64,000 nt of DNA from Microbacterium faecale. Its GTDB lineage: Bacteria; Actinomycetota; Actinomycetes; Actinomycetales; Microbacteriaceae. The translations under genes and the position numbers were made by a program. The stretch's first letter is position 1. Each line of letters opens with the position of its first letter. Positions 15,601 to 34,689 of the stretch are shown here, one piece after another. The stretch is from assembly GCF_014640975.1 (NCBI RefSeq), contig NZ_BMHO01000001.1, positions 2,630,936 to 2,694,935 of the forward strand. The letters are read 5' to 3'. The notes beneath the pieces were generated by a model that worked only from the letters and a program-made list of their open reading frames with translations, did not search any database and was not told the DNA's origin.

Positions 15601-15631
15601 CGGGCTCACAGGATTTGAGCCTGCGACCCTT
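15601..15631 (-). repeat. attL: orphan 3' half of tRNA-Pro (left edge of genomic island)
   Basis: Read on the minus strand this is a tRNA 3' half: TCAAG (anticodon-stem 3' side), a T-arm GCAGG-CTCAAAT-CCTGT, and an acceptor strand GAGCCCG. It matches the 3' half of the intact tRNA-Pro at 34529-34602 except for a few bases. Its acceptor strand pairs at six of seven positions with the acceptor strand CGGGCTG of the orphan 5' half ending at 34683. The two orphan halves may therefore be the original gene split by the island. Confidence 0.6.
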
Positions 15632-15914
15632 GAGCGATCGACGTGATCTACGTCACACATGCTTAGTACCCGTAGATGCCATACGGGAGTATGGATCGCA
15701 AGTGATCACGGTTCCCGCCAGTTCCCAGCTTTTCCGGTCCATCCCAGCTTTAGCGGGTACATCTGCGGGCACACAGCTCGTGAGCTTTAGCGTCCTGGAG
15801 CGTGCACGAGCTATAGAACAGGACCAGGAGCGTGTTCTTGGTATACGTCGTGGATTCTCCGGGCCCGAGTTCCTTGTGCCCTCTCTGGTCATATCGCCTG
15901 TCGGCGTGGTCGAT
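15632..15914. other. Island left-end noncoding sequence
   Basis: The stretch between the att-like site and the IS3 left inverted repeat has no credible gene on either strand. It contains short related phrases such as GTGATCTACGTCAC and CTCGTGAG-type words. It is best regarded as decayed mobile-element DNA. Confidence 0.35.
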
Positions 15915-16263
15915 TGAAGCGCCCTGGGTTTGATGGAGACTCGCGCTATTTGATTCCGGCCGGCAGGTTGCGGTCGTCTTGGACAGCATAGAACGTGTTC
16001 TCGAACTCCGCGCGTGGGACGTCGCCGAGGTAGCCGTGGAGGCGTTCGGTGTTGTGCCAGTGCACCCAGCCGAGGGTCGCCAGCTCGAGGTCCTCGACGG
16101 TCCGCTATGGCCCGGGGCGGGCGGGTCCGCGGACGAGTTCGGTCTTGTAGTACCCGTTGACCGTCTCCGCCAGGGCATTATCGAAACTGTCGCCGACGGT
16201 CCCGATCGACGGGGTCGCGCCGATCTCCGCGAGCCGTTCACCGTAGCGAATCGAGGTGAACTG

Positions 16264-17714
16264 ACCGGGCTCAACCAGTCGATGCAACACCGGACTGTTG
16301 CAACAATAGTATCTGGTCGTTGAACGCTTCCGCGGGGGTCATCCAGCCCAGCGACTTCCGAGGCCGAGTGTTCAGCGCGTGGGCGACCGCTTCGATGTCG
16401 TCGGCGCTCCAACGCGACAGGTCGGTGCCCTTCGGGAAGTTCTGGCGCAGCAGCCCGTTGGTGTTCTCGTTCGTGCCGCGCTGCCAGGGGGATTGCGGGT
16501 CGGCGAAGAACACCGGGATGCCCGTCTCGACGCGGAACTGCGCGTGAGCGGACATCTCTTTGCCGCGGTCCCAGGTCAACGACCGTGCCAGCTGGGCCGG
16601 CAGGCTCGACATCGTGTTCGCGAGGGCGTTCTTCATGGTGATCGCGCCGTAGCCGGCCAGGGCAGGCCCGTTCTTCGGCGTCTGTTTGTGCCGATACCCC
16701 TCCTCCCGCGGAAGATGGACCAGCAGCGTGTAGCGCGTCTTGCGCTCGACGACTGTGCCGACCGCGGAGCGCTCCAACCCGATCAGCAGATCCCCCTCCC
16801 AATGGCCAGGGACAGCGCGATCGGCGGCCTCCGCCGGGCGTTCGCTGATGAGCGTCCCCGGTGTGACGTGCGCCCAGGTCTTGCGCCGCGACCGCTCCCT
16901 CGGGACGCGCAGCGCCCTGCCGGTGCGGAGGTCCCAGACGAGTTCGCGTTTGAGGGCGCCGCGCCCCTCGATGAACAGCGACTGGTAGATCGCTTCCGGG
17001 CTGATACGCATGGACTCATCATCCGGGAAGTCGATCTTCAACCGATGTGAGATCTGCTCCGGACTCCAAGCCCATGACCAGGCCCTGTCCTTCCGATGCG
17101 GCTTGCCTCTCCCGGTGAACCGCGGCGGCTCCGGACCGGTGACGATCGTCCCGTCGGGACGGGTGATCTTCCCCGACAAGCGATCCTCGACATACGCGCG
17201 CAACCGCGGGTTCGCGACGAGCTTCGCGACCTTGGGTCGCTTCGCAGCCAAATCCGCCTTCCACTGCGCAACCGACGCCCGATACTCCAGCTTCCCGCCC
17301 CGCGTGGCCGCGTTACGTCGCAGCTCACGAGAGATCGTCCCGGGATCGCGACCAATCGTGCGCGCGATCTCGCGAACGCCCTTGCCCTTCTCCTTCAGGA
17401 TCGCGATCTCTTCACGCTCGGTGAAGGAGAGATAGCGGCCAGACAACTGTTGGGTGATATCGAACGGTGCCATGCCGCCAGCGTGTCGGAACCATCTCGC
17501 GCCGACTGCGGGCGCCACGCCGACAACCCCCGCAGCTTCCTCCGCAAGGAGCCCTTTCGCGATCTCGCCCCAGAATGCCGCCTCGACGGGCTTCTGGAAC
17601 TTCGGATGCCCCGGCGAGCGGAGCCTCGGACGAACCGCCCTGTCCGCGGCCTGCTGACGACGAACCATCAAACACCTCCTCATCGAGGTGTTGCGACGAC
17701 CAGTTGAATTCGCC
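16264..17714 (-). mobile_element. IS30-family insertion sequence
   Basis: The element is flanked by a 3-bp direct repeat CTG (16261-16263 and 17715-17717). Imperfect inverted repeats run inward from each end; the best matching parts are at 16272-16291 and 17687-17706 (16 of 20), both ending in GCAACACC or its complement. It carries one transposase gene on the minus strand. Insertion is in orfB of the surrounding IS3 element. Confidence 0.88.
16271..17668 (-). CDS. IS30-family transposase
   Basis: The 465-residue transposase has an N-terminal helix-turn-helix (YLSFTEREEIAILKEKGKGV, then IGRDPGTISRELRRN) and an RNaseH-like DDE core with GHWEGDLLIG (Asp), LTWDRGKEM (Asp) and RGTNENTNGLLRQ (Glu). 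The ATG at 17668 is preferred over 17683 because AGGAGG lies 6 nt upstream of it. The frame is intact from end to end and the stop falls in the left inverted repeat, so the element may still be active. Confidence 0.9.
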   Translation of the reverse strand: MVRRQQAADRAVRPRLRSPGHPKFQKPVEAAFWGEIAKGLLAEEAAGVVGVAPAVGARWFRHAGGMAPFDITQQLSGRYLSFTEREEIAILKEKGKGVREIARTIGRDPGTISRELRRNAATRGGKLEYRASVAQWKADLAAKRPKVAKLVANPRLRAYVEDRLSGKITRPDGTIVTGPEPPRFTGRGKPHRKDRAWSWAWSPEQISHRLKIDFPDDESMRISPEAIYQSLFIEGRGALKRELVWDLRTGRALRVPRERSRRKTWAHVTPGTLISERPAEAADRAVPGHWEGDLLIGLERSAVGTVVERKTRYTLLVHLPREEGYRHKQTPKNGPALAGYGAITMKNALANTMSSLPAQLARSLTWDRGKEMSAHAQFRVETGIPVFFADPQSPWQRGTNENTNGLLRQNFPKGTDLSRWSADDIEAVAHALNTRPRKSLGWMTPAEAFNDQILLLQQSGVASTG

Positions 17715-18319
17715 CTGGGCGCCCGCGTCGCTGTGACATCGAAGATCGTCGTGGTGGTGACCCCGGGACCAGCGGGCCATCTCGATCGCGTCGAGGACCA
17801 TCTCGGTGCGCATGTGTGACGCGACTCGCCACCCCACGATCATCCGGGAGAACGCATCGATGCTGAAGCAGACATAGGCGACGCCTGCCCAGGTGGGCAC
17901 GAACGTCAGATCCGTGACCCAGAGCCGGTTCGGGGCGGTCGCGGTGAACTCCCGCCGCACCAGATCCGGATGCCGCGACGCTGCCGGATCCGGGAGGGTG
18001 GTCCGCACCCGCTTCGAACGACTCGCGCCCTCGATCCCCGCAGCCCGCATCAGCCGCGCCGTCTGATCCCGCCCGATCACGATCCCCGCCCGCCTCGCGG
18101 CCTTCCAGAGCTTGCGGACCCCGTAGACGCGATAGTTATCCTCCCATATCGCCACCAGCTGCGGGATCAGCTCCGCATCCCGCAGGGCCCGGGCGGAGGG
18201 GGTGCGGTTCTTCGCGGCGTAGTACGTGCTCGAAGCCACCTGCAGCACGCGGCAGATGGGCTCGACTCCGAGTCGGCGACCGTCCAGAACGTCGTCCTTG
18301 TTCTGGTCGATGAACGCCA

Positions 18320-34113: not shown

Positions 34114-34337
34114 GGGCACCGGCGCGACCTGGATGGGCCGACGCAGGCATCCCCCTGCACGTGCCGCAATGCATCGTCGGGCACAAATCCATCGAGACCA
34201 CCCGCGGCTACCTCCACCCAGATACCCGGTACCTCACCTCCGCCGCCGCACGCGCCAACGCGTTCCTCGACAGACACGAAACCCCCGAGCGCGGGAGCTC
34301 CGCAACGTCCGACCGAGCGACGGCACCTCGGCGATGA
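34114..34337 (+). pseudogene. Tyrosine integrase 3'-end remnant (copy 3)
   Basis: GTGATWM, then after a one-base insertion ADAGIPLHVPQCIVGHKSIE, TTRGYLHPDTRYLTSAAARA, NAFLDRHETPE, ending RR-TGA at 34335-34337. The catalytic Tyr is present, but everything before the RHTGATW box is missing. It lies where an integrase belongs, with its 3' end facing the tRNA target. Confidence 0.78.
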
Positions 34338-34558
34338 AAACGCGGCCGATCGCAGCCCAAAACGGGCTCCAGGTCCCGGCTAGGTCCCGGCTCGTCACAA
34401 CGGCAGCAACCGACGCGTCCCGGAATGCATCAGCACCCGCGGTCGGATGCTTCCATAAACCCCTCCGAAAAGGACAACAGAAACGACGAAGCCCAGGTGA
34501 GAAACTTGCTCTCACCTGGGCTTTTCTGTCGGGATGACAGGATTTGAACCTGCGACCC
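34189..34558. repeat. Long direct repeat, copy B (integrase tail + terminator + tRNA 3' half)
   Basis: This is the second copy of the roughly 370-bp repeat at 27884-28257. The segment between the integrase stop and the hairpin (34338-34491) is noncoding and includes a tandem AGGTCCCGGC phrase. Confidence 0.85.
34492..34525 (+). terminator. Rho-independent terminator after integrase remnant 3
   Basis: CCCAGGTGAGA at 34492-34502 pairs perfectly with TCTCACCTGGG at 34510-34520 across AACTTGC, followed by CTTTTC. It separates the island from the tRNA gene transcribed on the other strand. Confidence 0.8.
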
Positions 34559-34602
34559 CTTGACCCCCAGTCAAGTGCGCTACCAAGCTGCGCCACATCC
34601 CG
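34529..34602 (-). tRNA. tRNA-Pro(GGG)
   Basis: This is a 74-nt tRNA on the minus strand. Acceptor strands CGGGATG and CATCCCG pair at all seven positions. The anticodon stem CTTGA/TCAAG encloses the loop CTGGGGG, giving anticodon GGG. The T-arm is GCAGG-TTCAAAT-CCTGT, the discriminator base is A and no CCA is encoded. It is the intact copy at the right edge of the island and probably serves as the working gene. Confidence 0.93.
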
Positions 34603-34689
34603 TTGTTCTATTTTCGAGCCGTACCGAGTCGTTACCGCACTTGACCCCCAGTCAAGTGCGCTACCAAACTGCGCCACAGCCCGTTGTTC
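34559..34689. repeat. 50-bp direct repeat of the tRNA-Pro 5' half
   Basis: Positions 34559-34608 and 34640-34689 are 50 bp each and differ at two bases. Each contains the tRNA 5' half from the anticodon loop through the D-arm to the acceptor strand, plus GTTGTTC flanking sequence. Confidence 0.9.
34639..34683 (-). pseudogene. attR: orphan 5' half of tRNA-Pro (right edge of genomic island)
   Basis: On the minus strand this reads CGGGCTG (acceptor), D-arm, and CTTGA-CTGGGGG-TCAAG (complete anticodon arm), then diverges into unrelated sequence with no T-arm. Its acceptor CGGGCTG pairs better with the orphan 3' half at 15601 (six of seven) than with the intact copy's 3' strand. This suggests that it was once joined to it. 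Confidence 0.75.

What the first reader, a model, noticed from the sequence alone, without database searches (positions are those of the whole stretch)
15601..34683. A 19-kb genomic island splits a tRNA-Pro gene and carries a replacement copy
The window holds an orphan tRNA 3' half at 15601-15631, an orphan 5' half at 34639-34683, and an intact tRNA-Pro(GGG) at 34529-34602. The orphan acceptor strands (CGGGCTG and GAGCCCG) pair with each other at six of seven positions, better than either does with the intact copy. The simplest reading is that one original gene was split near the anticodon stem and the island brought a full replacement tRNA. Most islands restore only the 3' half, so importing a whole tRNA is less usual.
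Basis: partly seen in the sequence, partly recalled or inferred. Interest (0 to 1): 0.75.

Follow-up and report, generated by a model that had tools for sequence, protein, structure and literature searches.

The report
Mobile island replacing a whole tRNA gene
A mobile DNA island cut this Microbacterium's only tRNA-Pro(GGG) gene in two and brought a complete replacement, and the same whole-gene swap recurs in many Actinomycetes as the habit of a family of apparently conjugative elements.

Summary
Orphan 5' half 34683-34645 and orphan 3' half 15633-15601 (minus strand) derive from one tRNA-Pro(GGG): relatives carry it uninterrupted behind the same upstream gene, its 5' half identical to the orphan for 44 nt. 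The only complete GGG gene found in the genome, 34602-34528, came with the island. The island is not one 19-kb unit: a third tRNA 3' half (28228-28257) and three integrase relics point to at least three decayed elements.

The wider find is a family. The same unit (orphan 5' half ending at anticodon loop CTGGGGG, 41-54 nt linker, complete tRNA-Pro, convergent tyrosine integrase) occurs in 61 of 366 Microbacterium species genomes and in 98 of 110 pattern stretches from 84,980 species, 27 named genera. The far end reads P arm-CTGGGGG-host 3' half; all 44 same-contig pairs share strand and order. Twelve elements examined carry a coupling protein (12) and a TrwC relaxase (11). Related integrases in three other genomes restore only the 3' half. 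Linkers rarely hold a -10-like box and tend to fold back on the orphan half. New variant of a known kind.

The parts
34720..34725 (-). host -10-like box (TAGACT) of the original tRNA-Pro gene, 36 nt upstream of the orphan 5' half
   Evidence: sequence; TANNNT lies at -31 to -44 before the orphan half in 87 of 115 loci, in linkers in 9 of 115; promoter role inferred, and the consensus scan found no full sigma-70 match
34645..34683 (-). orphan 5' half of the host tRNA-Pro(GGG), acceptor CGGGCTG, ending with the anticodon loop CTGGGGG (34645-34651), the inferred crossover overlap
   Evidence: uninterrupted homologues L008, L009
34603..34644 (-). 42-nt element linker between the orphan half and the complete tRNA; 34615-34621 (CGGCTCG, then A) resembles a 3' acceptor strand
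   Evidence: identical linker in a Leucobacter and a Flaviflexus locus; fold-back tests
34528..34602 (-). complete replacement tRNA-Pro(GGG), acceptor CGGGATG/CATCCCG, the only GGG copy found in the genome
34489..34523 (-). terminator-like hairpin just after the replacement tRNA
   Evidence: one site found; 0.6 expected in shuffles
34138..34380 (+). relic of the C-terminal end of a tyrosine integrase gene (nearest element, X) and following spacer
   Evidence: repeat D1; full-length homologue L067:18335-19561; Phage_integrase domain shown for the 23243-23530 copy
28258..34527 (.). body of element X remnant: TetR-like regulator, DrrA-like and ABC-2 transporter genes, HelR/HelD-like motor
27837..28079 (+). 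second integrase C-terminal relic (element Y)
23568..28257 (.). element Y remnant; 94.7% identical over 4692 aligned nt to the tRNA-Pro island of another Microbacterium (G114, L069)
23331..23573 (+). third integrase C-terminal relic (element Z)
   Evidence: Pfam Phage_integrase on 23243-23530
15634..23330 (.). element Z remnant with arsenic genes (18716-22516) and IS30/IS3-like insertion sequences (16271-18703)
   Evidence: IS3 label from the ORF sequences, by eye
15601..15633 (-). orphan 3' half of the host tRNA-Pro(GGG), three changes from the uninterrupted gene; left end of the pile

Best explanation
The locus is the decayed insertion site of mobile elements whose tyrosine integrase recombines at the 7-bp anticodon loop (CTGGGGG) of tRNA-Pro(GGG). 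Each element carries, next to that crossover core, a linker and a complete tRNA-Pro gene with no obvious promoter of its own. Integration leaves the host 5' half attached to the host promoter and leader, then linker, then the element's whole tRNA, then the integrase gene pointing at it; the host 3' half is pushed to the far end. SHOWN by sequence: both junctions in relatives, the uninterrupted gene in relatives, and linkage of unit, integrase, coupling protein and relaxase. INFERRED: that the integrase acts at this core; that the replacement tRNA is made by read-through from the host promoter and trimmed by RNase P; that the linker closes the orphan half so that it does not compete for folding. 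In this window at least three such elements piled up, the integrases decayed, and one foreign tRNA-Pro was kept as the only GGG gene found.
For: Uninterrupted gene with the same upstream region: L008, L009. Same unit in 61 of 366 genus genomes, the window's included, 24 of 398 genomes drawn family-wide, 19 of 85 genera, and 98 of 110 GTDB stretches as GGG type. Far-end junction with CTGGGGG before a host 3' half in 64 of 366 genomes, 44 of the 61 unit-bearing ones; all 44 same-contig pairs (36 genomes) on the same strand and downstream, 5.9-292 kb; left arms share motifs. Integrase of one family within 4 kb of the complete tRNA in 58 of 81 unit contexts. In 12 chosen elements a TraG-type coupling protein lies inside 12, a TrwC relaxase inside 11. 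Element's own acceptor stem fully paired in 116 of 117; a hybrid with the host 5' half would be imperfect in 70 of 117. Three integrase relics and an extra 3' half in the window.
Against: The window's left junction has lost the overlap, so its own element ends are not both intact. Only one orphan 5' half is present where three integrations would first leave three; loss of 81-nt units by recombination is assumed. No relative with the left flank joined to the uninterrupted tRNA was found. 17 of 61 unit-bearing genomes show no far end by the exact pattern, and 13 pairings fall on different contigs. Full-length integrase relatives in 3 of 20 genomes with an uninterrupted tRNA (G078, G004, G147) restore only the 3' half, so the integrase does not by itself dictate the whole-gene mode. 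23 of 81 unit contexts gave no integrase of the family. Transcription, processing and mobility are not measured.
Confidence: 0.85

Rival explanations
1. Ordinary 3'-half-restoring island plus a separate tandem duplication: an 81-bp slip duplicated the tRNA 5' half and leader after a normal integration, so the 'replacement' is just the restored gene and the orphan 5' half a duplication scar.
For: 81-nt direct repeat; in 4 of 7 doubly stacked loci the two linkers are identical, as slippage could give; 3'-restoring relatives exist.
Against: Linkers are related across genera, one identical in three named genera and a Nanopelagicales genome of four orders; orphan and complete copies often differ in acceptor type, hybrids imperfect in 70 of 117; the orphan half breaks off at the anticodon loop in the 115 GGG units; tRNA unit and integrase family go together.
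Confidence: 0.07
2. The linker contains its own promoter, so the element brings a complete transcription unit and the host promoter is irrelevant.
For: Linkers end in an A-rich stretch; the orphan anticodon stem holds TTGACT, a -35-like hexamer (seen).
Against: TANNNT lies at -31 to -44 upstream of the orphan half in 87 of 115 loci (11 of 115 at -47 to -60) but in only 9 of 115 linkers. The consensus scan found no sigma-70-like site anywhere in 34400-34900, host promoter included, so it does not discriminate.
Confidence: 0.2
3. Decay only: the orphan halves are the remains of an unrelated older event (for example a second tRNA-Pro gene) and the island imported nothing.
For: The left orphan has three changes and no overlap.
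Against: The 5' orphan sits behind the same upstream region as the single uninterrupted gene of relatives; the same arrangement with intact ends recurs in dozens of genomes.
Confidence: 0.03

Closest known systems
tRNA-targeting genomic islands with anticodon-centred crossover (Islander class A; PMC4383910, passages read)
   Same: Tyrosine integrase, crossover in the anticodon loop, tRNA plus displaced 3' fragment mark the ends, tandem arrays occur.
   Different: [quoted passage not shown] here it contains a complete tRNA gene behind a linker, and a 5' orphan stays at the promoter side. From the rules quoted, the pipeline should report the tRNA and the 3' fragment and, with its 2-kb minimum length, ignore the nearby 5' orphan (my reading, not run).
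Actinomycete integrative elements (AICEs, Ghinet et al. 2011, PMC3218068, passages read)
   Same: Actinobacterial, mostly tyrosine integrase, tRNA target, tandem arrays mentioned.
   Different: [quoted passage not shown] 'complete tRNA', 'restor' and 'anticodon' do not occur in the text. Elements here have a TraG-type coupling protein and TrwC relaxase.
Tycheposons of Prochlorococcus and Methylophilaceae (PMC10872708, passages read; the original Cell paper not held)
   Same: Tyrosine recombinase and a tRNA at one element border; that the Prochlorococcus ones carry a full-length tRNA is recalled, from no call.
   Different: Other phylum, other tRNAs; no orphan-half/linker stack is described in the passages read.
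3'-half-restoring relatives in the same genus (G078, G004, G147)
   Same: Homologous integrase (E 1e-121 to 1e-122), same target, far end with CTGGGGG about 14 kb away.
   Different: No linker, no second tRNA 5' half: the host 5' half is reused.

Membership tests
tRNA-targeting integrative element, anticodon-loop class | displaced tRNA fragment and regenerated tRNA flank the element | tested here: met
   in the window the ends are present but the left overlap is lost
tRNA-targeting integrative element, anticodon-loop class | tyrosine integrase encoded in the element | tested here: met
   in relatives; in the window only three C-terminal relics
tRNA-targeting integrative element, anticodon-loop class | attP holds a fragment of the target tRNA that restores it | tested here: not met
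   the element holds a whole tRNA behind a linker; the host 5' half stays orphan
Integrative and conjugative element (T4SS type) | coupling protein (TraG/VirD4 type) | tested here: met
   12 of 12 chosen elements of relatives; in the window's remnant none was noticed
Integrative and conjugative element (T4SS type) | relaxase | tested here: met
   TrwC (PF08751) inside 11 of the same 12 elements, not G126; PF03432 inside 0 of 12
Integrative and conjugative element (T4SS type) | mating-pair formation genes (VirB4 and others), transfer shown | not tested
   not searched; no transfer data
AICE (pSAM2-like) | FtsK/TraB-type translocase and Rep replication gene | not tested
   only integrase, coupling protein and relaxases were sought
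Tycheposon | full-length tRNA at one end, partial tRNA at the other, tyrosine recombinase (recalled) | tested here: inconclusive
   structure matches what is recalled, but the defining paper was not held and recombinase kinship was not compared

The most novel reading that the evidence does not exclude
A family of conjugative elements swaps the host's whole tRNA-Pro(GGG) gene for its own promoterless copy, which frees it from matching host tRNA halves and so widens its range across Actinomycete orders. Its linker is a reduced tRNA 3' half (anticodon 3' strand, acceptor-like strand and discriminator-like A, no T arm) that closes each orphan 5' half into a T-armless tRNA-like fold; this keeps the orphan from misfolding with the real tRNA and lets insertions stack, each leaving one 80-93 nt unit as a record. 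Where the orphan halves decay, as here, the host is locked into the foreign tRNA.
Probability: 0.4. Interest if true: 0.78.

Novelty: new variant of a known kind. Interest (0 to 1): 0.64.

Why it matters
Typical tRNA-targeting elements reuse half of the host gene. Here an apparently conjugative family replaces the entire gene, so a core translation gene is horizontally exchanged in about one in six Microbacterium species genomes held (61 of 366, exact pattern only). It gives a testable reason (no need for host and element halves to pair), a natural control inside the same integrase family (3'-restoring elements), a countable scar of past integrations, and a route by which a mobile element's tRNA becomes the host's only copy. 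Annotation that looks for one tRNA and one fragment would probably miss the orphan 5' halves and the tandem units.

Tried and rejected
Hybrid promoter from TTGACT of the anticodon stem plus a linker -10: no TANNNT at usable spacing in the window's linker by eye, and TANNNT in only 9 of 115 linkers; dropped. Left-flank empty site: window 12961-15560 gives only scattered weak hits in 11 of 12 relatives and none in one. CTGGGGG at the window's own left end: not there. Ten paper searches (listings, with passages of five papers read) turned up no description of whole-tRNA units with orphan 5' halves in Actinomycetes; the library lacks most subscription journals, including Williams 2002 and the tycheposon paper. 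Integrase relatives in plasmids (270 records) and phages (394 records) are all under 60% identity. Not all pattern hits count: of 122 unique loci, 7 fail the GGG-unit test (L103 and L176, pairs of intact tRNAs; L091, L114, L160, CGG-type look-alikes; L140, a tRNA-like insert; L164, a unit whose orphan reads TTCAC in the stem), and 5 of the 110 GTDB stretches (L117, L127, L130, L168, L187) were not scored, the complete tRNA being cut off or not parsed. The quick tree of 66 integrases puts the three 3'-restoring ones inside the unit-bearing group, two label changes, but with very long outgroup branches and warnings, so the direction of the switch is open.
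Full report
WHAT IS THERE. The window holds one complete tRNA, Pro(GGG), at 34528-34602 on the minus strand. In tRNA sense (right to left) the order is: -10-like box TAGACT, orphan 5' half with acceptor CGGGCTG ending in the anticodon loop CTGGGGG (34683-34645), a 42-nt linker (34644-34603), the complete tRNA with acceptor CGGGATG/CATCCCG, a terminator-like hairpin (34523-34489), and the tail of an integrase gene pointing at the tRNA. At the far left is an orphan 3' half, 15633-15601. 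The own-genome search found three tRNA-Pro genes: GGG in the window and one CGG and one TGG elsewhere. The GGG copy brought by the island is thus the only one found in an assembly of 99.19% completeness.

A second tRNA 3' half lies at 28228-28257, again beside an integrase tail (27837-28079), and a third integrase tail lies at 23331-23573. Window 28257 to 23568 matches the tRNA-Pro island of another Microbacterium (G114) at 94.7% over 4692 aligned nt. The 19 kb is therefore best read as a pile of at least three decayed elements. Three integrations would first leave three orphan 5' halves; one remains, and I assume loss of units by recombination between the 81-nt repeats. The acceptor-pairing argument fails: orphan 5' with orphan 3' gives 6 of 7, and orphan 5' with intact 3' gives 6 of 7 too.

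EMPTY SITE. A search of 198 genus genomes with the right flank (194 matched, most of those listed in the tRNA part alone) led to L008 and L009, which match the flank through the reductase gene and have an uninterrupted tRNA-Pro(GGG), CGGGCTG/CAGCCCG, whose 5' half is identical to the window's orphan over 44 nt; the window's 3' orphan differs from it at three positions. Twenty loci picked for an uninterrupted tRNA all read as one gene. The left flank could not be used: 11 of 12 relatives gave only scattered weak hits.

A RECURRENT UNIT. The pattern of two 5' halves 45-75 nt apart occurs in 61 of 366 genus genomes, the window's included, and in 24 of 398 genomes drawn from the family, 19 of 85 genera. 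A scan of 84,980 species genomes gave 110 stretches (80 were listed, 110 were held). Across 160 loci held (30, which had 61 genomes; 110; 20, which had 24 genomes) there are 122 unique loci; 115 pass the strict GGG-unit test, 7 fail, and 5 stretches were not scored. Of the 110 GTDB stretches 98 pass, in 27 named genera, 12 named families and 6 named orders. Linkers are 41-54 nt, units 80-93 nt. Seven of the 122 loci have two orphan halves; in three of these the two linkers differ (L065, L170, L191), which points to serial integration, and in four they are identical, which slippage could also give. One linker is identical in Haematomicrobium, Microlunatus, Nocardia and a Nanopelagicales genome; the window's linker is identical in a Flaviflexus and in a Leucobacter locus, and window 34139-34740 matches L105, L109 and L181 of these genera at 91-92% over 546-559 nt.

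ENDS AND MOBILITY GENES. The far end, seen first in G126 and G146, reads P arm-CTGGGGG-host 3' half. A pattern for it hits 64 of 366 genomes, 44 of them among the 61 with the unit; all 44 same-contig pairs (36 genomes; stacked or multiple sites count more than once) lie on the same strand and in the right order, 5.9-292 kb apart, median 45 kb (the hypergeometric p of 2e-27 ignores relatedness). Thirteen further pairings fall on different contigs, and 17 unit-bearing genomes have no hit, the window's among them. Of the 20 genomes with a far end but no unit by the exact pattern I looked at six (G078, G004, G071, G138, G147, G128): all have an uninterrupted tRNA; the other 14 were not examined for this. 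Left arms share motifs and group by their last bases (30 loci). An integrase of one family sits within 4 kb of the complete tRNA in 58 of 81 unit contexts and in 0 of 8 plain ones held then (many loci have only about 1.5 kb downstream). In the later set of 20 plain loci, G078, G004 and G147 have full-length homologues and restore only the 3' half, G071 has a 169-aa fragment, and G138, G128 and G029 have distant integrases (E 1e-14 to 1e-7). In 12 elements, chosen mainly for size from the 36 genomes, a TraG-type coupling protein lies about 3-5 kb inside in all 12 and a TrwC relaxase inside 11, all but G126; PF03432 relaxase inside none. I call them apparently conjugative; VirB4 and transfer were not tested.

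WHY A WHOLE GENE. The element's own acceptor stem is fully paired (G-U allowed) in 116 of 117 units with a GGG tRNA; a hybrid of host 5' half and element 3' half would have a mismatch in 70 of 117. A whole copy removes that constraint, which fits the spread over several orders. This is an inference, and 47 of 117 would have paired anyway.

EXPRESSION. A TANNNT box lies 31-44 nt upstream of the orphan half in 87 of 115 loci, against 11 of 115 at 47-60 nt, and in only 9 of 115 linkers. The consensus scan found no full sigma-70 site in 34400-34900 on either strand, host promoter included, so it does not help. Read-through from the host promoter is the likeliest source, not shown.

THE LINKER. In the predicted fold of the window transcript the linker pairs with the orphan 5' half (z -2.6). 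For 87 distinct linkers, at least six of the seven orphan acceptor bases pair with the linker in 56, against 16% of shuffled linkers; a perfect 7-nt complement exists in 31 of 87, against 5%. The match is to the native CGGGCTG type (43 of 87 perfect) rather than to CGGGATG (3 of 87). With one entry per 75%-identity cluster and a fixed native 5' half, 9 of 14 clusters reach five pairs, control 25%, and five clusters fall below (0-4 pairs); all linkers join one cluster at 60%, so they are related and the clusters are not fully independent. At the best of 22 offsets tried the acceptor-like strand has mean pairs 5.0 against 2.9 at other offsets in 45 short linkers, and 5.5 against 2.6 in 35 long ones, and is followed by A in 43 of 45 and 32 of 35. 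The linker looks like a reduced tRNA 3' half without a T arm. Whether it is a functional closure or a decayed remnant is open.

NOVELTY. Anticodon-loop integration and tandem islands are known (Islander, passages read; tandem arrays of AICEs, passages read). Carrying a complete tRNA is recalled for tycheposons (original not held; a follow-up read in passages). The ten searches listed under Tried and rejected turned up no account of whole-tRNA units with orphan halves and linkers in Actinomycetes. The verdict is a new variant of a known kind.

Noticed in passing
window 18716-22516: Arsenic gene set in the pile: two ArsC-like reductases, ArsR-like regulator, ACR3 efflux, a thioredoxin-like frame and thioredoxin reductase.
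   Followed up: partly
window 31444-33555: HelR/HelD-like RNA polymerase recycling motor, below the NCBIfam cut-offs, next to DrrA-like and ABC-2 transporter genes.
   Followed up: no
G022 C1:3368535 and C1:3654577: Two places with the tandem 5'-half pattern in one genome, 286 kb apart; a far-end site lies 6 kb from the first.
   Followed up: no
L091, L114, L160: Units on tRNA-Pro(CGG) in unnamed Actinomycetes with a different, tRNA-like linker, perhaps an independent family with the same habit.
   Followed up: no
L140: A unit whose linker holds a GGTTCAAATCC T-arm-like stretch, a possible intermediate between a tRNA 3' half and a linker.
   Followed up: no
G184 C1:1121899-1359971: Two stacked units with a far-end-like site 238 kb downstream, either a very large composite island or a displaced end.
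   Followed up: no
G253 C4:48567, 68158, 84289: Three far-end sites in a row but one orphan 5' half: element number and orphan number need not match.
   Followed up: partly
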